A DNA stretch of 64,000 nucleotides from a virus. The notes below the pieces were generated by a model. The model searched no databases. It was not told the DNA's origin and saw only the letters and a program-made list of their open reading frames with translations. Made by a program: the position numbers and the translations under genes. The stretch is from positions 1-64,000 of the IMG/VR virus record IMGVR_UViG_3300017963_000025, one strand, 5' to 3'. Within the stretch, counting starts at the first letter, position 1, and every line of letters begins with the position of its first letter. Positions 9,177-50,149 of the stretch are shown here, piece after piece.

Positions 9177-9728
9177 ATGACACATAAGTACTCAGTCCGT
9201 GAGGGAACCTATCGCGGAAGAAATGGCATGCTCCAAAAATTGCGACTGTTCTTTATTGTGGGAGGGAAGGAAATACCACAATATAATATCTTACGGGAAG
9301 GATTAGTCAGACACGCCGATTGTCACAAAACCAGTCCACCCGCACACGACCTTGCATCAGAAATAAACAGGCTTGCAATCCGCGTCAGGTCATCCGTGTA
9401 TTTTGAAACCGAACTGGAGTACTGCAAAGTTTTCGTTTCACAGGAAGGACAGTTCAAACAATTCTATTCCTTTTATCTGCAATTTGTCCAACCCCCGAAA
9501 AAAATCGTTACCATTCGTCCGTTTGATCCTGATTCCCCCCTGATGTTCCGAGGTTCAGTTAGATTCCTAACTAAGGCCGAGGTAATGCAACTAATTGACC
9601 CGACAAGTACGTCGGCAACATTTTATCTGGCACAATCCACACTGCCAAGAAAAGTACTAGAAAACATGATTACTGTGCAAGAAAAAACGATTCGCGGGCA
9701 ACGGAAAATCCGTATCATCGCAAATTAG
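9177..9728 (+). CDS. Protein of unknown function
   Basis: The 183-residue protein starts at ATG after CGGGAAAAG. It is basic and mixed alpha/beta, with no Cys clusters, signal peptide or membrane segment. It may belong to the early small-gene set that precedes the replication origin. Confidence 0.65.
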   Translation: MTHKYSVREGTYRGRNGMLQKLRLFFIVGGKEIPQYNILREGLVRHADCHKTSPPAHDLASEINRLAIRVRSSVYFETELEYCKVFVSQEGQFKQFYSFYLQFVQPPKKIVTIRPFDPDSPLMFRGSVRFLTKAEVMQLIDPTSTSATFYLAQSTLPRKVLENMITVQEKTIRGQRKIRIIAN

Positions 9729-11088: not shown

Positions 11089-11322
11089 ATGTTTCAGCAT
11101 GAAATGGAATTCCGTGAAGATACGGAAATGATTGATTATGTGTTTGAATTTTTGGGGGTAACCCCCAGGGGCGCAATTATTGTAACGGATGAGAATAACC
11201 GCAAATTATTCCTGCCCCCGGATCATGTCGAACCCGACGAACCTCCGGAAGAACTCGAACCCGGAGAAACCGTGCTAATCCAAATACCCGTGTGGCTGGC
11301 GAAAAAGGAGGGACTTATCTGA
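11089..11322 (+). CDS. Small acidic protein of unknown function
   Basis: The ATG at 11089 is preferred to one at 11074 because GAGAGGA lies just upstream of it. The 77-residue protein has a Pro/Glu-rich hinge (EPDEPPEELEPGE). Its stop overlaps the start of the next gene. Confidence 0.6.
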   Translation: MFQHEMEFREDTEMIDYVFEFLGVTPRGAIIVTDENNRKLFLPPDHVEPDEPPEELEPGETVLIQIPVWLAKKEGLI

Positions 11323-11690
11323 TGGAGGGACCAAAAATAACGTATAAATGCAAAGTGTGTGGAGAAAAATTGACCGATTTCGAACAATTGCGGAAGCACT
11401 GTCCCCAAGATGAGCGGTTTGAAGATTGGATCAAACCGTTTGAACTTTGTCATTATACTGACGGTTTGTTTTGCAAAGAATGCCGTCAGAAAATAATTGA
11501 CAAACGTATCGCCGAGTTTGACGGGGACACGAAATACACAGATGAAATGATTTGCCCGCATTGCGGCTATGAATACTCGGACAGTTGGGAATTGCAAAGC
11601 GAATCCGACGAAATAATATGTGACGATTGCGGAAACGAATTTAGATATGAAAGAATCGTAACAGCGGAGTATATAACGAGTAAAATCTGA
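11322..11690 (+). CDS. Zinc-ribbon protein sharing a block with SSB
   Basis: This 122-residue protein has at least three zinc knuckles (CKVCG, CKECR, CPHCG and CDDCG). Residues about 17-40 are almost identical to a segment of the single-stranded-DNA-binding protein at 17461: FEQLRKHCPQ through EDWIKPF. The shared peptide suggests that both proteins contact the same partner or fold the same way there. The gene overlaps its upstream neighbour by one base. Confidence 0.7.
   Translation: MEGPKITYKCKVCGEKLTDFEQLRKHCPQDERFEDWIKPFELCHYTDGLFCKECRQKIIDKRIAEFDGDTKYTDEMICPHCGYEYSDSWELQSESDEIICDDCGNEFRYERIVTAEYITSKI
11373..11443 (+). repeat. 71-bp block shared with the SSB gene (copy A)
   Basis: This block and 17977-18047 agree at 65 of 71 positions. 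All six differences are silent in the shared reading frame. Confidence 0.85.
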
Positions 11691-11710
11691 AATGAGGAGG
11701 GACTCATCTT

Positions 11711-11947
11711 ATGGCGACAAAAAAATCATTTGTAAAAAATATTTCATGGAACAACCACCCGCCTACTGAGAAGGACTTTCCAATTCTGATTCTTATTTAT
11801 TCGATGGGATCCGAAAAGATATATACGGACATTCTCAGTGCGGATATTATTAAGACGGATTCGCGACCGAATTTCAGCCAAATCACGTTCGGAACGGAAT
11901 ACGTGTGGAAAAGCCTGTTTGATCTGATGGTCCGACATGAAATCTAA
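11711..11947 (+). CDS. Small protein of unknown function
   Basis: This 78-residue protein follows AGGAGGGACT. It has a beta-strand-rich N-terminal half (KDFPILILIYSMG) and no Cys. The pattern DFPI..L..Y is reminiscent of small phage proteins described only as hypothetical. Confidence 0.55.
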   Translation: MATKKSFVKNISWNNHPPTEKDFPILILIYSMGSEKIYTDILSADIIKTDSRPNFSQITFGTEYVWKSLFDLMVRHEI

Positions 11948-12043
11948 AGGAGTAGGAAAATATGTAAATTGTTAAAAGACTTGTATGTGGACCAACGTGA
12001 GTTTATTGGTGGACAAGAAATCAAGTGAGAAAGGAAAAGTGCA

Positions 12044-12274
12044 ATGAGTAAAGCCATTTCATATGAAGATTACCATGCATACGGATGTCCTGCATGTGAG
12101 TCAGGAAACAAAAAGGTTGCCATCCATATCCAGACACCTGTTGACGCATTGCTAATATGTTCGGAGTGCGGAATGGGTTTTATTGTGGCGTTTGACGGTG
12201 CGAAGGAAACACCAAACGGAACCGTTGTCGATCATCCGTTGAAAAAACAGACATGCTTAACGGAGTTGGGATAA
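12044..12274 (+). CDS. Zinc-ribbon protein before the origin block
   Basis: The 76-residue product has CPACE and CSECG pairs spaced about 25 residues apart, a zinc ribbon. Its stop codon touches copy 4 of the palindrome. An upstream AAAGGAAAAG serves as ribosome binding site. Confidence 0.65.
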   Translation: MSKAISYEDYHAYGCPACESGNKKVAIHIQTPVDALLICSECGMGFIVAFDGAKETPNGTVVDHPLKKQTCLTELG

Positions 12275-12292
12275 TCCGCAAACGTTTGCGGA
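12275..12292. repeat. 18-bp palindrome copy 4 (exact)
   Basis: This exact copy directly follows a TAA stop and stands at the left edge of the non-coding origin candidate. Confidence 0.95.
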
Positions 12293-12297
12293 TTAAA

Positions 12298-12352
12298 AAT
12301 CATTACATTGTGATACTTTACTCGTCCAAAACAATATCACAATGTAATGATT
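12298..12352. repeat. 18-bp perfect inverted repeat (large hairpin)
   Basis: AATCATTACATTGTGATA at 12298-12315 is exactly complementary to 12335-12352, with a 19-nt loop. No T-run follows, so termination is unlikely; protein binding or an RNA structure is more plausible. Confidence 0.85.
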
Positions 12353-12403
12353 TGACAGCTACCGTAAAATCCAACCCATGGGAAAATATGGCCTTTTTTT
12401 CCC

Positions 12404-12451
12404 ACCAGCGGGAATATGCGTCCCATGGGCGGGAATATGCGTCCCGCTGGT
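12404..12451. repeat. GC-rich dyad with internal direct repeat
   Basis: ACCAGCGGGA (12404-12413) pairs with TCCCGCTGGT (12442-12451). Between and across them GGGAATATGCGTCCC occurs twice in direct orientation. Such repeats are typical of initiator-binding sites. Confidence 0.8.
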
Positions 12452-12656
12452 TGGATGAGTATATAAATATAAGAAATAAGATATAAGAAATAATAAGTGA
12501 ATAATAGCGAAATGAATTCCGCTGCTAGCAATTTTTTTATTTTTTTGGGAAGGTGGATTTCCAGAGGGGAATCCAAAAGTTTGTATCAGCGCTACATTCA
12601 GATAGGATATAGGCGCGGCCAAAAGGTTTTACTTTTTTCAACCCGGAGGTGACAAA

Positions 12657-13544
12657 ATGACCACATTTCGAAAAAACAAATACCAGATTTCGTACCTGAC
12701 CCGCAAATCCGCCACGTTATTTTGTGGAAATACGGATCGGGAAATTGTTTGCCACATCATTGACCGCACATTGTCATGGGGGAAAATAGCCGAATTTATT
12801 CCGTATTCCGAGTTGGTTGAAGGATTCCCGGTATTGTGCTATTTTCCCCGTATATCCAGATCAGCCGCATATCGTTCCGTTTCAAATCTGCTTGACAATG
12901 GCATCATCGGAAGGCATCGGGAAACGCGATGCGTATATTCTGTGAATATTCCGGAATTCTACAAATTGTGGCATCGCATGTTTCACGACGCGCAAGACAA
13001 CAAATTGTGGAATACGGTGAAATCCGTGGAATCCGATATTCTGGACCAATACAACCGGTCGGATATTCGATTTGAACCCCTTACGCTGAGCAGCGAGGCC
13101 ACTATGAATATTGAAACCGCCATCCGTTTTGCCCAACGGAAATCCGTTGCGGCCCGAAAACGCAATGCCGAAAAACCGGTAAAAAATTCAAAACATCTCA
13201 TTTGTCTGATTCGCTATCTGGCGGACGACATGAAGGTGTATATCAACGAATATGTCACCGACAAAGTCCGGGGGCAGATGAACCATTTTATCAAATCCTA
13301 TTGCCCGTCGATCAAAAAAACGCCGGAGTGGTTCGTGCGCGAATCCATGGAGGAGTGGCCCCGGATGTTCAATGAAAAAATTGTGCTGAACCGCATGTTT
13401 TGCTTTGATGAGATGTACCGACGTAAGAACAAAATTTTTGAGCATCTGGTCCGGGACGAGTTGGACGATGCCGAATTCGGACGACCGAATGAACCGAGAG
13501 AAATCCGGATTATTGATTTGCGAACCAAAAAACAGTTGGCCTGA
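12657..13544 (+). CDS. O-like replication initiator (winged helix)
   Basis: The 295-residue protein has an N-terminal winged-helix pattern like lambda O-type and RepA-type initiators: REIVCHIIDRTLSWG (residues about 28-42), then SRSAAYRSVSNLLDNGIIGR as the recognition helix and turn. The C-terminal 150 residues are basic and less conserved. It likely binds the repeats just upstream to start DNA replication and recruit helicase. A GGAGGTGAC site precedes the ATG. Confidence 0.72.
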   Translation: MTTFRKNKYQISYLTRKSATLFCGNTDREIVCHIIDRTLSWGKIAEFIPYSELVEGFPVLCYFPRISRSAAYRSVSNLLDNGIIGRHRETRCVYSVNIPEFYKLWHRMFHDAQDNKLWNTVKSVESDILDQYNRSDIRFEPLTLSSEATMNIETAIRFAQRKSVAARKRNAEKPVKNSKHLICLIRYLADDMKVYINEYVTDKVRGQMNHFIKSYCPSIKKTPEWFVRESMEEWPRMFNEKIVLNRMFCFDEMYRRKNKIFEHLVRDELDDAEFGRPNEPREIRIIDLRTKKQLA

Positions 13545-13612
13545 CCGCGCAGATTGCCGTATTTTCGATCTTTTCATGGCAACCCATATCTGACTATCAA
13601 AAAACAAACAAA

Positions 13613-13627
13613 TGCCGAAATTCGGCA
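13613..13627. repeat. Short palindrome in intergenic gap
   Basis: TGCCGAA and TTCGGCA flank a single A, giving 7-bp arms. It lies just before the ribosome binding site of the next gene and may be an operator or a weak hairpin. Confidence 0.4.
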
Positions 13628-13646
13628 AATGAGAGGCTTTTACGCA

Positions 13647-14279
13647 ATGACAATCACATACCCCTGGTCCGACACCTCCCATATCGAGCCGGACTTGCTG
13701 AAACTGGTAATGACGCATCTTCAAACGAATGTTGCCCGCCAACACGAAATTGACGAAAAAGAACGCATTGAAAAACTTACACTGACGATTCTCAGACAAT
13801 TGGAATCTGCCGAATCGCGCATGCTTTTGGTGGTGTCCGGTGATATCCGCCTCTTGCGAGATTTGTGGGTGGTGCCGGCCACGTACACGCTGACCGTGCG
13901 CCATGACGGAGAAATACCGGAGAGTCGGATCACTGATGCGAATCGTATCGGGGAATGCTACCGCTACCCGACACAACCGGTTCAAAAGGAAATTGATGTA
14001 ATCACCCGCACCGGATTTCTATTGTGGGAAAACATTGGCACCCCGTATTATCTGGCGAAAAGCCGAACGGCGGAAATCGAGGGGGTGTTGTCCGAACGGA
14101 TACGCCTGAAATTGCCCACCGTGTTCAGCCATTTTTCAACGCATTCGGACAACCGCGTTTTTCGGGAAATAAGCGTGTCCGTGGGAACGAAGATTGCCAC
14201 GATTTTGGAACAATGCGCGGATGTGCTGGTGGCCGAGTCCGGCAAGTCCGCTGGAACCGTGACGAAAGTGAGGATGTGA
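13647..14279 (+). CDS. Helicase-loader-like protein without a P-loop
   Basis: The 210-residue protein resembles the second half of DnaC/DnaI-type loaders: FLLWENIGTPYYLAKSRTAEIEGVLSER..KLPTVF follows the Walker B and sensor layout of that family. The expected GxxGxGKT loop is absent; LLVVSGDIRLL stands where it should be. It lies between the initiator and the DnaB-like helicase, the normal place for a loader. It may load helicase without ATP hydrolysis, or be a vestigial loader. The start overlaps none; ATGA coupling joins it to the helicase. Confidence 0.5.
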   Translation: MTITYPWSDTSHIEPDLLKLVMTHLQTNVARQHEIDEKERIEKLTLTILRQLESAESRMLLVVSGDIRLLRDLWVVPATYTLTVRHDGEIPESRITDANRIGECYRYPTQPVQKEIDVITRTGFLLWENIGTPYYLAKSRTAEIEGVLSERIRLKLPTVFSHFSTHSDNRVFREISVSVGTKIATILEQCADVLVAESGKSAGTVTKVRM

Positions 14280-15556
14280 TGTCGGTGGGCATAGGGCTGA
14301 TTAAGTCGTTGTGTGACCAAAACGTTCGCGCATCCGTTGTGTATGACCATGGGATCGGGGATCATCTGTTTACGCCGGACGAACGCGCCGCGTGGGATTT
14401 TGTTCGGGATTTTTGCACGACCCACGGACGCTATCCGTCTGTTGACACCGTAGTGGGCCATTATCCCGAATTGTCCGTCCGCTTTGACAATATGCCGGAC
14501 GAACCGTTTACCTATTGGGCCGACTTGGGCAAAAAAAGGCGGGTGACCAATCTGGCCAGGGAAATGGCGGACACGGTGCATCGGAGGATGTCCGCAGGTG
14601 CGAATATTGACACGGACGACCTGACGCGAATTGCAAGCCGGTTTATATCGGACGCGCGATCCTGCACAGGGTCAAAAATAGTATCACTAAGTGATATCAC
14701 TGAAGAATTGTTGCGGATGCATGACCACCGCCAACTGGCAACGGGCATTTCCGGTATTCCCACCGGGTTCCCGTTTTTTGACCGGGTGTTTGACGGATTA
14801 CAGACCGGGGACGTGCTGAGTCTGGTGGGGAAGACCGGCATGGGAAAGTCGTTTGTCATGGCGAAGATGTGGAACGCCGCATACGACAACGGGTACAGCC
14901 CGTTCGTGGCATCCATGGAAATGCCAATACCCCAACAGGCACGGCGCACATTGGCCCTGCGCTCACGACTTCCGGGAACGGCGATTCGCGTGGGCCGGTT
15001 GGACTTTGCCGGTCGGGAGTTATTGGGGCATACGGCGGAAGCGGTACGGGAAAACCGACAACAAATCTGGTTTACGGATCATGTCAAATCCGTGGACGAG
15101 ATTGCCGCCGTCGCACGTGACCTTGGGGCAAACCCGATATTTATTGACGGCGCGTATATTATTGACGAAAATGATCGCGGTGCGGTGTGGGAACGTGTGG
15201 GCAAGGTGGCCCAGAATATCCGGGATATGGCGATGAGCCTGGGGGTTAGCGTGGTGAGCAGCTATCAGTTCAACAATTCCGGGGAGGGGTTGCATAATAT
15301 CCATTTTAGCCCGAATATCAAATACCTTGCCAGTATTGTTTTGGGGCTGAGACAGGAGGAACCCCGCCCCGGCGTGGGGCGTGTGCTGAGCACCACCGAA
15401 CGGAAAATATTGGAAATCCTCAAAGGCCGGGAGGGGGAGTATGGGGCTATCGAGGTGGAATGGGATATGCGGCGGACCAATATCTGCCAACGGCGCGTGC
15501 TATGGTCACGGGCGGATGATGACGAATCCGACGGAGGGGACGAATGGAACGAATAA
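14279..15556 (+). CDS. DnaB-like replicative helicase
   Basis: This 425-residue RecA-fold ATPase unwinds DNA at the fork. It has the family entry ISGIPTGFPFFDRVFDGLQTGDVLSLVG, Walker A GKTGMGKS at about 187-194, SMEMP after it, and a Walker B-like FIDGAYII near 295. The N-terminal 130 residues match the short helical domain of DnaB relatives. The ATG overlaps the stop of the loader-like gene, showing coupling. The C-terminus overlaps the start of the ComM-like gene. Confidence 0.88.
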   Translation: MSVGIGLIKSLCDQNVRASVVYDHGIGDHLFTPDERAAWDFVRDFCTTHGRYPSVDTVVGHYPELSVRFDNMPDEPFTYWADLGKKRRVTNLAREMADTVHRRMSAGANIDTDDLTRIASRFISDARSCTGSKIVSLSDITEELLRMHDHRQLATGISGIPTGFPFFDRVFDGLQTGDVLSLVGKTGMGKSFVMAKMWNAAYDNGYSPFVASMEMPIPQQARRTLALRSRLPGTAIRVGRLDFAGRELLGHTAEAVRENRQQIWFTDHVKSVDEIAAVARDLGANPIFIDGAYIIDENDRGAVWERVGKVAQNIRDMAMSLGVSVVSSYQFNNSGEGLHNIHFSPNIKYLASIVLGLRQEEPRPGVGRVLSTTERKILEILKGREGEYGAIEVEWDMRRTNICQRRVLWSRADDDESDGGDEWNE

Positions 15557-16143
15557 ACATTGTAGGGTTGGAACAAGAGCGACGGATTATGGAAATCGCG
15601 GTCACCGGGAATCACGGGGCCATGCTGATTGGTCGAAAGAACAGTGGCAAACGGCTCATGATGAGGGAATTTCTAAACATAATCGGTTATCCTGATTCCG
15701 TACTGACCCATGCGTCCAACAAATATGTGGGACCGGATGACAGTTGTCTGGTGTTTGACCCGGCGTATTGCCACAACGGGAGTGTGCTGGCGAACAAACG
15801 ACACGGACGGGTGGGATGGAAAGACGTGGCCGGAAATCCGAAACAGGAATCTATGATTCACGTGGCAAAGCGTGTTTTTTTAGCGCGTTATTTTTTGTAT
15901 GAGAAGCCGTTCGATTATGATGCAATCCGAAAAAAATCGGACGGCGTTACATTGAAACTGATTGAGGAGGCATACGACCGGTTGTCACTGAATTCCGGGG
16001 ATGTCGTGGATTTGATGAACGTGGCCTACACGATTTTTATTTTGTCCCGTGAAAAAAAATTGGGTGTCGGACATGTTGCGGAGGCAATCGCCTACTGCCC
16101 ACAAAAATTGGATCATGAGCATGAAAAAAGAAACGATCCTTAG
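15544..16143 (+). CDS. Short ComM/Mg-chelatase-like AAA+ protein
   Basis: This 199-residue protein joins two ends of a ComM (YifB) type ATPase. VGLEQERRIMEIAVTGNHG then LIGRKNSGKR resembles the ATPase entry and P-loop, but with GKR in place of GKT/S. The C-terminus LSLNSGDVVDLMNVAYTIFIL..HVAEAIAYC resembles the ComM end that scans for branch migration. The central half of the family's usual 500 residues is missing. ComM-type proteins drive branch migration; here the changed P-loop suggests a regulatory or scaffolding role in replication. The gene overlaps both neighbours. Confidence 0.6.
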   Translation: MERINIVGLEQERRIMEIAVTGNHGAMLIGRKNSGKRLMMREFLNIIGYPDSVLTHASNKYVGPDDSCLVFDPAYCHNGSVLANKRHGRVGWKDVAGNPKQESMIHVAKRVFLARYFLYEKPFDYDAIRKKSDGVTLKLIEEAYDRLSLNSGDVVDLMNVAYTIFILSREKKLGVGHVAEAIAYCPQKLDHEHEKRNDP

Positions 16144-17119
16144 ATTTCTGAACGCATTGGGCGCGGACATGACGCGGATGCGTATTCGGGGGGACTGGAT
16201 GAACGTGCGGTGTCCGTTGGCACATATTACCCACACCAACGGGGATGCGCATCCGAGTTGCGGAATTCTGATATCCGATGACGGACCGGCAATATACCAT
16301 TGTTTCGGGTGTTCCGGGGGCAAACCGGAGTCGTTGTCGTGGATGGTCCACACGATGTGGGTTGCCACGGGACGATACCCGACAGATGCGGCAAAGATAC
16401 TGGCCAGTGAAAATTTTGTATCAGAGAGTGACGCTCCGGTATTTGATTGGGACATCCGCAAACGTTTGCGGATGACACCCCTGGATGCCGACGTGTTGAA
16501 GCAATATCCGCCATTGTCCGACAGCGTATCGTGCCTGACCGCCATGGTGGTCCGGAACTGGCTTACGGAATGCAGGGGGTTGGCTCCAAGCATAATTGAC
16601 ACGCACGGGTTGCGGTATTCCCCAGAGAATTGTACCGTGGTGTTTCCGCTGACAGATCATGCCGGGAACATTTTTGTGTTGCAAGAGCGGATGATTGGTA
16701 CGAAAAAAATGTGGACCGTAAATGAAAACACGTCCGGTGTGCATGTTGACTACCCCACAATTCGCCATGCGGGGTGTTGGATGAATCTTAAAAACGCGGA
16801 TTGGGGTCGCCCCGTGATGCTGGTGGAAAGCGGATTTGACGCGGGCCGGATTGCGTCTCTCGGGTTTGACAATGTGATTGCGTCCGGGGGTACGGGTGTT
16901 ACTCCCGCGCAAATCGGGGCGTTGGCCGGTCACACGTATATTTTGGGATATGACAATGATCGGGCAGGTCAACAGGCAATGGCAAGAATTGCCCGTATGT
17001 TGGGGAATCATACGGTGTATGTGGCGGATTGGGGCGTGGTGGGGGTTAAGGACGGTGGTGATTTGGTTAATGCGGAACAATTAAAAAAAGTTTTGACGAA
17101 TACACGCCGCATGACTTGA
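16115..17119 (+). CDS. DNA primase (CHC2 zinc finger and Toprim)
   Basis: The 334-residue protein makes RNA primers for replication. The N-terminus carries a CHC2-type finger (CPLAHITHTNGDAHPSCG, then YHCFGCSG). The Toprim part is around residues 225-300: VMLVESGFDAGRI, the VIASGGTG turn and GYDNDRAGQQA with the acidic metal ligands. Codons 114-119 (IRKRLR) come from a palindrome copy. Two starts, ATG at 16115 and 16121, are possible; both overlap the ComM-like gene. It lacks a helicase domain, fitting the separate DnaB-like gene. Confidence 0.88.
   Translation: MSMKKETILRFLNALGADMTRMRIRGDWMNVRCPLAHITHTNGDAHPSCGILISDDGPAIYHCFGCSGGKPESLSWMVHTMWVATGRYPTDAAKILASENFVSESDAPVFDWDIRKRLRMTPLDADVLKQYPPLSDSVSCLTAMVVRNWLTECRGLAPSIIDTHGLRYSPENCTVVFPLTDHAGNIFVLQERMIGTKKMWTVNENTSGVHVDYPTIRHAGCWMNLKNADWGRPVMLVESGFDAGRIASLGFDNVIASGGTGVTPAQIGALAGHTYILGYDNDRAGQQAMARIARMLGNHTVYVADWGVVGVKDGGDLVNAEQLKKVLTNTRRMT
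16455..16472. repeat. 18-bp palindrome copy 5 (exact, inside primase gene)
   Basis: This exact copy is read as IRKRLR between the zinc finger and Toprim parts of the primase. Confidence 0.95.
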
Positions 17120-17144
17120 CTACCGATGAAAAAAACGGTATCTT
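17116..17144 (+). promoter_or_regulatory. Promoter before the 17179 gene and SSB
   Basis: TTGACT and TATCTT lie 17 bp apart at the very end of the primase gene. The start would serve the 17179 gene, SSB and possibly the following recombination genes. Confidence 0.65.
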
Positions 17145-17178
17145 TTAGTAATTTCAACAAAAAAAGGGGAAAAAATAA

Positions 17179-17409
17179 ATGAGTGAAAAATTGGTTAAAT
17201 TGTTGCTTAGACAGTACATTACCCAACTGAACGAAATTCAACAGGAAATTTTGGGATCACTGCCAGACGAATGTTTAAACAATACGGACAACGAAGGAAA
17301 CAAGTTTTCACCTCCGTGTATTGGAAGAGAAATACTCCACTATCCGATTCTGGACGGATTGGGCGATTTTATTAGTCGGATGCAGATGGACGAGGATTTG
17401 CTCGAATAA
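17179..17409 (+). CDS. Small protein of unknown function before SSB
   Basis: This 76-residue protein follows AAAAGGGGAAAA. The N-terminus is helical (LVKLLLRQYITQLNEIQQEIL). It has its own promoter and is the first gene before SSB. No motif is recognised. Confidence 0.6.
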   Translation: MSEKLVKLLLRQYITQLNEIQQEILGSLPDECLNNTDNEGNKFSPPCIGREILHYPILDGLGDFISRMQMDEDLLE

Positions 17410-17460
17410 AAAAATAATTACAAGGACAAAACAAAGAAACAAAAGAACGGAGAGGAAAAA

Positions 17461-18297
17461 ATGAATGATTGGTGCATTACCGGTGAAAAAGGATGGGATA
17501 TTGCGGAACAAGACGCGAAAGACAGACAACAGAGGTATGAAGAAAACAAGAAAATCAAATACCGATTTCGGATTCCGCCGAACAGTGAGGCCACGGTGCT
17601 GTGGTTGGACAACCTTTGGTATTTTCTGTATGAACATTCGGTCAGGTTGAACGGGTATTTTAGCCGGATGACCTGTATTCAGTCCAAGGAGGATTGTCCG
17701 GAATGTTTGCGCGGAGGAAGGCGCATATTCGGTGTGGCGTCTACAATTATTCGCCTGACGCCCTATGTTACGAGAAAAGGAGAACAACGAAATTATATGA
17801 AGTGTCCCGTGGTGTTCAGCGGGAAAGCGTTGGAAAATATCAAAACCCAACACCAAAATATGGATAAGAATATGATCGGATTGGTGTACCGGTTCAGACG
17901 CGGGTCCGACTCCAAAAGTTGTGCCACCGGGGAGGATTTCACCCCCATAATGCAAAACGGATCGGTGATCCGAATCACCGATTTTGAACAATTGCGGAAG
18001 CATTGTCCGCAGGATGAGCGATTTGAAGACTGGATCAAACCGTTTGATTATACCGAACAATTCCCGTTTTATCCGGCGGATGTGATGCGTCGAAAGCTCG
18101 GTATCCCGGACCCGATGGGCGCGGCGCAGCCCCACGGAACGGAAAGCACCGATTTGAATTCCATATTCGGAACGAATGCCGTGTCCGTCGCACCGACACC
18201 CGATTCTGGCGCACCTGCCAATATTGATGATTTGTTTGCAGGCGGGGGGTCACAACAAACAGAAACAGTGCCACCGGACGATGACATACCATTTTGA
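17461..18297 (+). CDS. Single-stranded-DNA-binding protein with acidic DDDIPF tail
   Basis: The 278-residue protein ends in DDDIPF, the acidic tip that bacterial and phage SSBs use to bind partners. Residues 30-170 hold a beta-rich core consistent with an OB-fold or phage gp32-like binder, with two Cys (CPECL) that could bind metal. Residues about 175-198 share an almost identical block with the zinc-ribbon protein at 11322. It coats single-stranded DNA during replication and recombination. The C-terminal 60 residues are a Pro/Gly/Ala-rich linker as usual in SSBs. Confidence 0.8.
   Translation: MNDWCITGEKGWDIAEQDAKDRQQRYEENKKIKYRFRIPPNSEATVLWLDNLWYFLYEHSVRLNGYFSRMTCIQSKEDCPECLRGGRRIFGVASTIIRLTPYVTRKGEQRNYMKCPVVFSGKALENIKTQHQNMDKNMIGLVYRFRRGSDSKSCATGEDFTPIMQNGSVIRITDFEQLRKHCPQDERFEDWIKPFDYTEQFPFYPADVMRRKLGIPDPMGAAQPHGTESTDLNSIFGTNAVSVAPTPDSGAPANIDDLFAGGGSQQTETVPPDDDIPF
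17977..18047 (+). repeat. 71-bp block shared with zinc-ribbon gene (copy B)
   Basis: This matches 11373-11443 at 65 of 71 positions, all differences silent. Confidence 0.85.
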
Positions 18298-25386: not shown

Positions 25387-26349
25387 ATGGCAAAAGCAAA
25401 ACTTGAAACAAAAACGAATGTGGGGCAGAGTACGATCAGCAAAACCGCGAGATCCCTGTACGATGCGATTATTAGTGCGGACAGTGTGATTGATGATTCG
25501 TTTGTGTCTTTGGCAGAAAATCTCCACAAGTTCAGTTCGATGGAATACTACCAACAATTCGGGTATTCCAGATTCACAGAGTTTGCGGAGAAAGAGGTAC
25601 GGATCGGTTCCCGGAAATCCGAATACATGGTGAAAATATGGAATTTCGTCAAGGATTGTGGTATTCCTACGAAAGAAGTAAAAAAACTCGGATGGTCAAA
25701 GATGAAAGAGGTGGCGCGGGTGGCATCCGTTGAAACCGCAAAGGCGTGGATGGAAAAAGCAAAAATGATGTCCACGCGGGATTTAATCGCGGAGGTGAAA
25801 AAACACAAAAATCCGTCAAAACCGGGAGATGAAAACGGAAGCACGACCGAGTTTAAATTCACTGTGGACACGGACGAATCCACCATTGTCACGGATGCCA
25901 CTAATTTGGCGAAGACACTCGGAGCGAAAACGGATGCGGATGCCATGCTGGTGATTTGTCAAGAGTGGATGGAGTTCAAGGGGGAAAGTCCGGTCATCAC
26001 GCCACTGGATACAATGCTTAAATACATGGCAGCTAATTACGGCGTGATCCTGACGGTTGCGGAACAACCTGAATCTGCGGAGGTGGCGGCGGAAAAAGAA
26101 TCAAAAGAATCGGCAAAGAGAAAAGAAACAAAAAAGAAAACAAAACCGGATGCAAAGCCGAAAAAATCCAGAAAAATCGTGAAGACCGTTCCACCGCCGG
26201 ATACAAGCTATAGCCCGGAAAGGGAACTGGACCGTATTATCGGAACCGAACCTCCTCCCCCGGAATTTGATTCGTTGGAATCAATTATGGCTGGTAGTGC
26301 GAAGGAAAAAGGAACGGATGATTTCGATTTGGACGCATTTCTGGGGTAA
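25387..26349 (+). CDS. Conserved phage protein with Lys-rich linker
   Basis: The first 140 residues (YYQQFGYSRFTEFAEKEVRIG...LIAEVKKH) follow a helical pattern seen in many phage proteins of unknown role. The middle is acidic and structured, and residues 230-260 are almost all Lys, Glu, Ala and Pro, a flexible linker. The acidic end resembles a protein-binding tail. An AGAGAGG site precedes the ATG. It may be part of the replication machinery by position. Confidence 0.55.
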   Translation: MAKAKLETKTNVGQSTISKTARSLYDAIISADSVIDDSFVSLAENLHKFSSMEYYQQFGYSRFTEFAEKEVRIGSRKSEYMVKIWNFVKDCGIPTKEVKKLGWSKMKEVARVASVETAKAWMEKAKMMSTRDLIAEVKKHKNPSKPGDENGSTTEFKFTVDTDESTIVTDATNLAKTLGAKTDADAMLVICQEWMEFKGESPVITPLDTMLKYMAANYGVILTVAEQPESAEVAAEKESKESAKRKETKKKTKPDAKPKKSRKIVKTVPPPDTSYSPERELDRIIGTEPPPPEFDSLESIMAGSAKEKGTDDFDLDAFLG

Positions 26350-41858: not shown

Positions 41859-41904
41859 GGCTTGGCTCCTTTTTGGTTTGGGTTTCTCTCGCTGTCTGGA
41901 ATAT

Positions 41905-41933
41905 ATAATAATTCCTTTTAAGGCAATTGTCAA
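41905..41933 (-). promoter_or_regulatory. Promoter cassette copy A (leftward)
   Basis: On the minus strand, TTGACA and TATTAT lie 17 bp apart with the spacer ATTGCCTTAAAAGGAAT. The surrounding 90 bp are nearly identical to the copy at 46323. Confidence 0.85.
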
Positions 41934-42001
41934 GTATTATTTTTCATATTTTTATTTTTTTTACACGGATGTACACTAATGAGTACCTGTTTTTATTTTG
42001 G

Positions 42002-45178: not shown

Positions 45179-45223
45179 GTCGACCCCCTTTTTGGTTAGT
45201 GTGTTTCCCCGTTACTGAAATAT

Positions 45224-45252
45224 ATAATAATTCCTTTTAAGGAAATTGTCAA
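45224..45252 (-). promoter_or_regulatory. Promoter cassette copy C (leftward)
   Basis: TTGACA and TATTAT lie 17 bp apart on the minus strand with the spacer ATTTCCTTAAAAGGAAT. A T-rich stretch upstream matches the other cassette copies. Confidence 0.85.
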
Positions 45253-45349
45253 GCATTATTTTTCATATTTTTTATTTTTTTTACATGATAACCGTCCAAG
45301 GCCATCCTGGCCACACGGTCAGGGGGCCATTCCGACAGAAATTCGTTCC

Positions 45350-46154: not shown

Positions 46155-46200
46155 GTGTCGGCCCCCTTGTGGTTAAGTGTTTTCCCCATGTTCTGAGTAT

Positions 46201-46229
46201 ATAATAATTCCTTTTAAGGCAATTGTCAA
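46201..46229 (-). promoter_or_regulatory. Promoter cassette copy D (leftward)
   Basis: TTGACA and TATTAT lie 17 bp apart on the minus strand with the spacer ATTGCCTTAAAAGGAAT. It forms a divergent pair with copy B at 46323. Confidence 0.85.
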
Positions 46230-46322
46230 GTATTATTTTTCATATAACCGAATATTTGCGAGAGAGCGTTATTTTGATGGTGTACATCCGTGTAAAAAAA
46301 ATAAAAATATGAAAAATAATAC

Positions 46323-46351
46323 TTGACAATTGCCTTAAAAGGAATTATTAT
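46323..46351 (+). promoter_or_regulatory. Promoter cassette copy B (rightward)
   Basis: TTGACA and TATTAT lie 17 bp apart with the same spacer as copies A and D. It begins the long rightward accessory operon. Confidence 0.85.
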
Positions 46352-46396
46352 ATATTCCAGACAGCGAGAGAAACCGACAACCACGGGAGAAAGACA

Positions 46397-48172: not shown

Positions 48173-48376
48173 CGAACCGTGATGTCAAAAACGTATTTGT
48201 CACACGGTGAGGAGAAAAGAATGGTCGAAAACTTTTTGCTTGTCACACGAAAAGCGGATATTACATTCCTTACCATATTTTCACCATGTATTCGGATTTT
48301 TCATGTCCCCCCTACCAAACGGGGACTAAAATTATATGATATTTTGAATCGATTTTTCCTGTTGGGAGATAGCGCT

Positions 48377-49948: not shown

Positions 49949-50078
49949 GAATGAGTGTGAATCGAATTGATGCGAATATTGTGAATTGAAAGAAACGGAC
50001 AAGGGAAGGTATGTCCTTCTGTCCTCTTCACTTTCCCAATTCTTTTGAAAAAAACTAAAAAAATATGAAAAATAATGC

Positions 50079-50107
50079 TTGACAATTGCCTTAAAAGGAA
50101 TTATTAT
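50079..50107 (+). promoter_or_regulatory. Promoter cassette copy E (rightward)
   Basis: TTGACA and TATTAT lie 17 bp apart with the same spacer as copies A, B and D. The palindrome copy 15 lies in the predicted leader 43 bp downstream. Confidence 0.85.
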
Positions 50108-50149
50108 ATATTTCAGACAGCGAGAGAAACCCAAAACAAAAAGGATATG

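What the first reader, a model, noticed from the sequence alone, without database searches (positions are those of the whole stretch)
11373..18047. Zinc-ribbon protein and SSB share a segment of about 23 residues; all DNA differences are silent
The 71-bp blocks at 11373 and 17977 differ at six positions, each silent in the shared frame (TTC/TTT, CAC/CAT, CCC/CCG, CAA/CAG, CGG/CGA, GAT/GAC). Duplication without constraint would have produced amino-acid changes. The peptide FEQLRKHCPQ...EDWIKPF is therefore under selection in both proteins, perhaps as an interface to a common partner of the replisome. I know of no such shared element.
Basis: partly seen in the sequence, partly recalled or inferred. 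Interest (0 to 1): 0.72.

Follow-up and report, generated by a model that had tools for sequence, protein, structure and literature searches.

The report
SSB gene fragment copied into zinc protein
In this bacterial virus a 71-base piece of the gene for its single-stranded-DNA-binding protein was copied, in frame, into a small zinc-binding protein gene; the two pieces now differ only silently, and this looks like gene patchwork by recombination rather than proof of a shared binding partner.

Summary
In detail: 11373-11443 and 17977-18047 match at 65 of 71 bases. All six differences are third-position and silent, and there are only two copies in the 85.4-kb virus record. The segment is native to the SSB, a T4 gp32-like protein: five SSB relatives have the region in place, and the closest reads CPEDEKFEDWIKPFDY. 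Four relatives of the zinc protein lack it and have instead a native zinc-ligand stretch (WRCPEHYKCDDCG type). So SSB DNA was copied into the zinc gene, replacing that stretch and removing three candidate zinc ligands. The silent-only pattern (dN 0, dS about 0.8) shows protein-level constraint somewhere along the path joining the copies. It does not show constraint in the zinc copy, because a donor SSB from a sibling phage would give the same pattern. The genome holds a second such event: 46 bp of its DnaB gene copied inverted into ORF 9177-9728, within an insertion of about 22 residues. There 5 of 6 differences are also silent in both frames, although the two peptides are unrelated. A shared replisome interface is therefore not needed, though still possible (about 8%). 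Best reading: mosaicism by short-tract recombination in a phage prone to it.

The parts
17461..18297 (+). gp32-like single-stranded DNA-binding protein (278 aa), the donor family
   Evidence: Homologues in Rhodobacter phages annotated gp32-like SSB; phrog_17226; PDB profile search hits only gp32; Foldseek best hit T4 gp32 8gme, E 4.6e-5, prob 1.00
17977..18047 (+). 71-bp block inside SSB, residues 173-195 TDFEQLRKHCPQDERFEDWIKPF; native to SSB
   Evidence: Region collinear in L001, L067, L068, L020, L008; motif kept in L001; AF2 pLDDT about 81-85, two short helices
17635..17706 (+). SSB zinc-site motif H59-x12-C72-x6-C79-x2-C82
   Evidence: Invariant H59, C72, C79, C82 in 5 SSBs
18277..18294 (+). 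SSB C-terminal tip DDDIPF, same as the tip of bacterial (E. coli type) SSB
   Evidence: Translation; the resemblance to the bacterial SSB tip is from general knowledge
11322..11690 (+). small zinc-ribbon protein (122 aa), the recipient
   Evidence: Homologues L002/L003, L021 (two copies), L038; C-terminal ribbon phrog_6504 E 4e-14
11373..11443 (+). 71-bp SSB-derived block inside the zinc protein, residues 18-40; replaces the native stretch of WRCPEHYKCDDCG type
   Evidence: Absent from all four zinc-protein homologues that have the N-terminal domain; from the Cys to the LC the lengths equal those of L002 and both L021 copies (17 aa)
11349..11402 (+). C10-x2-C13-x12-H26-C27: zf-C2H2-like half finger created at the junction (H and C supplied by the SSB piece)
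   Evidence: Pfam zf-C2H2 29.4 bits, above cutoff; no such hit in homologues
14610..14655 (+). 46-bp donor block inside the DnaB-like helicase gene (true start probably 14279)
   Evidence: DnaB homologues L067/L068 collinear across it and beginning at residue 86 of the long ORF
9354..9399 (+). inverted copy (87%) of the DnaB block inside ORF 9177-9728; lies in a ~22-aa insertion absent from the L068 homologue
25615..25641 (+). 27-bp block with an exact inverted copy at 48273-48299: third short duplication between genes

Best explanation
A piece of an SSB gene was copied in frame into the zinc-protein gene by short-tract recombination (gene conversion or template switching) in a virus where such copying recurs. 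It replaced about 20 native residues of the N-terminal zinc domain, in register on the 3' side. Shown: the shared block, SSB as the native owner, absence of the block in zinc-protein relatives, and a second independent fragment copy in the same genome. Inferred: the molecular mechanism, and that the silent differences mostly reflect constraint on SSB lineages (the donor being the SSB of a sibling phage, or the resident SSB drifting silently after copying) plus at most ordinary constraint on the zinc protein, not a shared replisome interface. The junction may still bind zinc (C10, C13, H26, C27), which would explain why the fusion is tolerated.
For: SSB relatives keep the region in place with similarity graded by kinship. 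Zinc-protein relatives from three virus lineages have a different native sequence there. The replaced stretch is in register from the Cys to the LC. A 46-bp DnaB fragment sits inverted in ORF 9177-9728 exactly where the L068 homologue has a gap, with 5 of 6 differences silent in both frames. A 27-bp exact inverted gene-to-gene copy also occurs. Phage protein mosaicism, including recently emerged cases in replication proteins, is a described phenomenon (PMC10684548).
Against: No close kin with both genes was found, so the donor allele (own SSB or a sibling's) is not identified; no other IMG/VR contig except L001's encodes DExFEDWIKPF. dS about 0.8 with dN 0 is a long silent path; if both copies aged inside this genome, the zinc copy must have been constrained too.
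Confidence: 0.8

Rival explanations
1. One reading: the peptide is a functional interface held by selection in both proteins so that both bind the same replisome partner, or so that the zinc protein competes with SSB for one.
For: dN 0 against dS about 0.8; the segment is structured at the end of the SSB core; both genes lie in the replication half of the genome.
Against: Not present in any zinc-protein relative. The zinc model is unconfident there. The DnaB case shows the same silent pattern without a shared peptide. Protein contacts of SSBs are generally through the C-terminal tip, here DDDIPF (general knowledge).
Confidence: 0.08
2. Old duplication with independent ordinary purifying selection on both proteins: the SSB core needs the segment for its fold, and the zinc protein needs it for its new fold or zinc site, with no common partner. 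(A sub-case of the best explanation as regards origin; it differs on the cause of the silent pattern.)
For: Silent-only differences; the junction creates a C2H2-like site that would need H26/C27 and the spacing.
Against: The upper limit of dN/dS, about 0.06 over the whole path, is very strict for 23 of 23 residues of a small accessory protein.
Confidence: 0.3
3. Reverse direction: the zinc protein's finger gave the segment to SSB.
For: The N-terminal part matches a zinc-finger pattern well (29.4 bits).
Against: SSBs of L001, L067 and L068 have the region natively and zinc homologues do not.
Confidence: 0.02
4. Assembly artefact: the block was chimerically joined into the zinc gene in a metagenome assembly.
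For: The virus record comes from IMG/VR, mostly metagenomic assemblies.
Against: The copies differ at six sites, the frame and register are preserved, and zinc-family homology continues on both sides; a chimera with the same genome's SSB would be identical.
Confidence: 0.02

Closest known systems
Phage protein mosaicism by shuffling of protein fragments (PMC10684548, Nat Commun 2023)
   Same: Unrelated phage proteins share a near-identical fragment through recent recombination; reported for replication proteins too
   Different: Here the fragment is sub-domain size (23 aa), donor family and recipient lie in one genome, and the donor region is the edge of an SSB core
T4 gp32-like single-stranded DNA-binding proteins
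   Same: Zinc-binding H-C-C-C motif in the OB-fold core, acidic C-terminus, best fold match gp32
   Different: Shorter zinc loop (C-x6-C; T4 gp32 has C-x9-C, from general knowledge), tip DDDIPF of bacterial SSB type
phrog_6504-type small zinc-ribbon proteins of phages
   Same: C-terminal CPHCGYEYSDSWE...CDDCG ribbon and YxTSKI end
   Different: N-terminal zinc domain has its middle replaced by SSB sequence, losing the CDDC pair and a His

Membership tests
gp32-like SSB | Zinc site His-x12-Cys-x(6-9)-Cys-x2-Cys in the core | tested here: met
   H59, C72, C79, C82 invariant in five SSBs
gp32-like SSB | gp32-type OB-fold core | tested here: met
   Foldseek 8gme_B E 4.6e-5, prob 1.00, though TM 0.39-0.45 from a medium-confidence model; PDB profile search lists only gp32 entries, weak E 0.006-0.03
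gp32-like SSB | Acidic C-terminal tail | tested here: met
   Low-confidence (probably disordered) tail ending VPPDDDIPF
gp32-like SSB | Cooperative ssDNA binding | not testable with these tools
   Needs biochemistry
phrog_6504 zinc-ribbon proteins | C-terminal CPxCGYE...CxxC ribbon | tested here: met
   E 4e-14; C78, C81, C100, C103 invariant in nine proteins
Long form of the zinc protein (L002/L021 type) | N-terminal domain with WRCxxHYxCDDCG | tested here: not met
   Replaced by the SSB segment
Classical C2H2 zinc finger | C-x2-C-x12-H-x3-5-H | tested here: not met
   C10, C13, H26 present with exact spacing, second His missing (C27 follows instead); Pfam 29.4 bits over residues 8-26 only
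Recently emerged phage protein mosaicism | Fragment of high identity shared by otherwise unrelated proteins | tested here: met
   23/23 aa and 65/71 bp; no other similarity between the two genes
   Region retained in SSB relatives, absent from zinc-protein relatives

The most novel reading that the evidence does not exclude
The zinc protein has captured a piece of its own phage's SSB and keeps it under selection as a mimic, either competing with SSB for a replisome partner or acting as a decoy for a host defence that senses phage SSB (phage SSB is reported to trigger AbpAB, PMC10732053).
Probability: 0.08. Interest if true: 0.65.

Novelty: new member of a known kind. Interest (0 to 1): 0.33.

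Why it matters
It is a clean case of a sub-domain gene fragment copied in frame from a core replication gene into an accessory gene, with a second (inverted) case in the same genome. It shows that silent-only differences between two copies do not by themselves prove selection on both. If the zinc copy did prove to be selected as an SSB mimic, it would be a new route to regulating SSB or evading SSB-sensing defences.

Tried and rejected
Reverse direction (zinc to SSB): rejected by homologues. More copies elsewhere in the virus: none. Donor allele in IMG/VR by degenerate peptide pattern DExFEDWIKPF: only L001's contig. Peptide in named phages: no match. Kin by portal gene: L067 and L068 found, both with SSB but without the zinc protein. 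Zinc-protein structure: no PDB match below E 0.1, so its zinc sites could not be judged. Host identification through the 18-bp palindrome failed: only scattered single hits in genomes. Short dispersed duplications as such are not unique to this virus: several unrelated phage loci (L023, L026, L033) have them too, while nine of eleven loci of SSB- or portal-bearing relatives have none.

Full report
Observation. The 71-bp pair is real: 65 of 71 bases match, and all six differences are third-position and silent. It lies in frame in two real genes, a 278-aa SSB (17461-18297) and a 122-aa zinc-ribbon protein (11322-11690). The window belongs to a virus record of 85,381 bases whose first and last 123 bases are identical, as expected of a complete circular assembly. 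No third copy exists in it.

What the two proteins are. The SSB is a T4 gp32-like protein. Its relatives in Rhodobacter phages are annotated so. A profile of five relatives finds only gp32 in the PDB, and the best fold match is gp32 in 8gme. The His-Cys-Cys-Cys zinc motif is invariant in the five. The zinc protein's C-terminal ribbon belongs to a widespread phage family (phrog_6504), and a 53-bp stretch of it is 87% identical to an unrelated Manatee Spring phage. Its N-terminal domain has long-form relatives in L002/L003, L021 (two copies) and L038.

Who owns the segment. In SSBs the region is native: L001 reads DPKVLEQFCPEDEKFEDWIKPFDY, L068 SRSELKKLVPDAKRSEANEWIKPFGY, L067 KPEAIAKLCPAGTTPEEFLKPLDY, and the Rhodobacter type is shorter. 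In the zinc family the same place holds CGEAAPKHIWRCDTHYHCDDCGTREGLC or close variants. From the Cys to the LC both versions have 17 residues, so the SSB piece replaced the native stretch in register there. The flanks CKVCG and LCxxxDGxxCxxC...KRIAEFDGDTxYT are zinc-family sequence. The copy therefore went from an SSB gene to the zinc gene. It removed a His and the CDDC pair, and supplied HC at a spacing that makes a C-x2-C-x12-H half finger (Pfam zf-C2H2; absent in relatives).

What the silent differences mean. dN is 0 over 57 sites and dS is about 0.82 over 12 sites; the 95% upper limit of dN/dS is about 0.06. The estimate rests on few sites. It rules out neutral drift of the zinc copy for the time the silent changes took, if the copy was made inside this lineage before those changes. 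It does not rule out a recent copy from the SSB gene of a sibling phage that had already diverged silently under purifying selection on SSB. The constraint on the path is strict, as expected of a conserved replication gene, so I rate that route at about 0.5 and independent ordinary constraint on both proteins at about 0.3.

A second case in the same genome. A 46-bp piece of the DnaB-like helicase gene (14610-14655) lies inverted, 87% identical, in ORF 9177-9728 at 9354-9399. The L068 homologue of that ORF lacks about 22 residues there, while the DnaB homologues of L067 and L068 are collinear across the donor site. Five of the six differences are silent in DnaB and five of six are silent in the recipient frame, though the encoded peptides are unrelated. 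So short gene-to-gene copying recurs in this virus, and a mostly silent pattern appears without any shared peptide function. A third, 27-bp exact inverted copy links 25615-25641 and 48273-48299.

Structure. In the SSB model the segment is predicted with pLDDT about 81-85 as two short helices at the end of the core. In the zinc model most of it is about 53-56. Both models rest on shallow alignments.

Verdict. Observation confirmed; interpretation only partly supported. This is phage protein mosaicism of a known kind (PMC10684548), at a small, sub-domain scale and within one genome. A selected SSB mimic remains possible but has no positive evidence.

Noticed in passing
2069, 5914, 8156, 12275, 16455, 18920, 22150, 28148, 32511, 40609, 42334, 44773, 50150, 51771, 63479 (exact); 23640, 45375, 55108, 58853 (1 mismatch); and 66638, 74403, 80234 of the record: A perfect 18-bp palindrome TCCGCAAACGTTTGCGGA occurs 18 times exactly and 22 times with up to one mismatch in the 85-kb virus record (0.01 expected in the window), about every 4 kb, in genes and between them. 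It is nearly absent elsewhere: one IMG/VR contig and 24 single hits in 257 Gb of genomes. In portal and helicase it lies at positions that align without gaps to relatives, so it is not an insertion there; it looks like a dispersed binding site of a virus protein (inference). Perhaps more interesting than the finding itself.
   Followed up: partly
9354-9399 and 14610-14655: 46 bp of the DnaB gene copied inverted into a small gene within a ~22-residue insertion.
   Followed up: yes
25615-25641 and 48273-48299: 27-bp exact inverted duplication between a gene and the 5' region of a DNA methyltransferase-like ORF.
   Followed up: partly
18277-18294: The gp32-like SSB ends in DDDIPF, the tip by which bacterial SSBs bind their partners (general knowledge); its relatives L001, L020, L067 and L008 end otherwise. 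Possible mimicry of the host SSB tail.
   Followed up: no
L068 from 20489 (and L080): The SSB of the 94.9-kb relative G011 is fused to an array of about six similar repeats (MSKGELKDFIDENGLDVKVKATDK type, SAP-like by eye; Pfam weak PADR1/Ish1).
   Followed up: partly
41868-41976, 45187-45285, 46164-46258, 46280-46381, 50048-50145: Near-identical ~100-bp cassettes containing promoter-like TTGACAATTGCCTTAAAAGGAATTATTATA in both orientations, up to 100% identical.
   Followed up: no
11538-11590: 53 bp of the zinc ribbon are 87% identical to an unrelated 37-kb phage MW202423: the ribbon itself seems to move between phages.
   Followed up: partly
record positions 1-123 and 85259-85381: The two ends of the virus record are identical over 123 bp, suggesting a complete circular assembly.
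   Followed up: no
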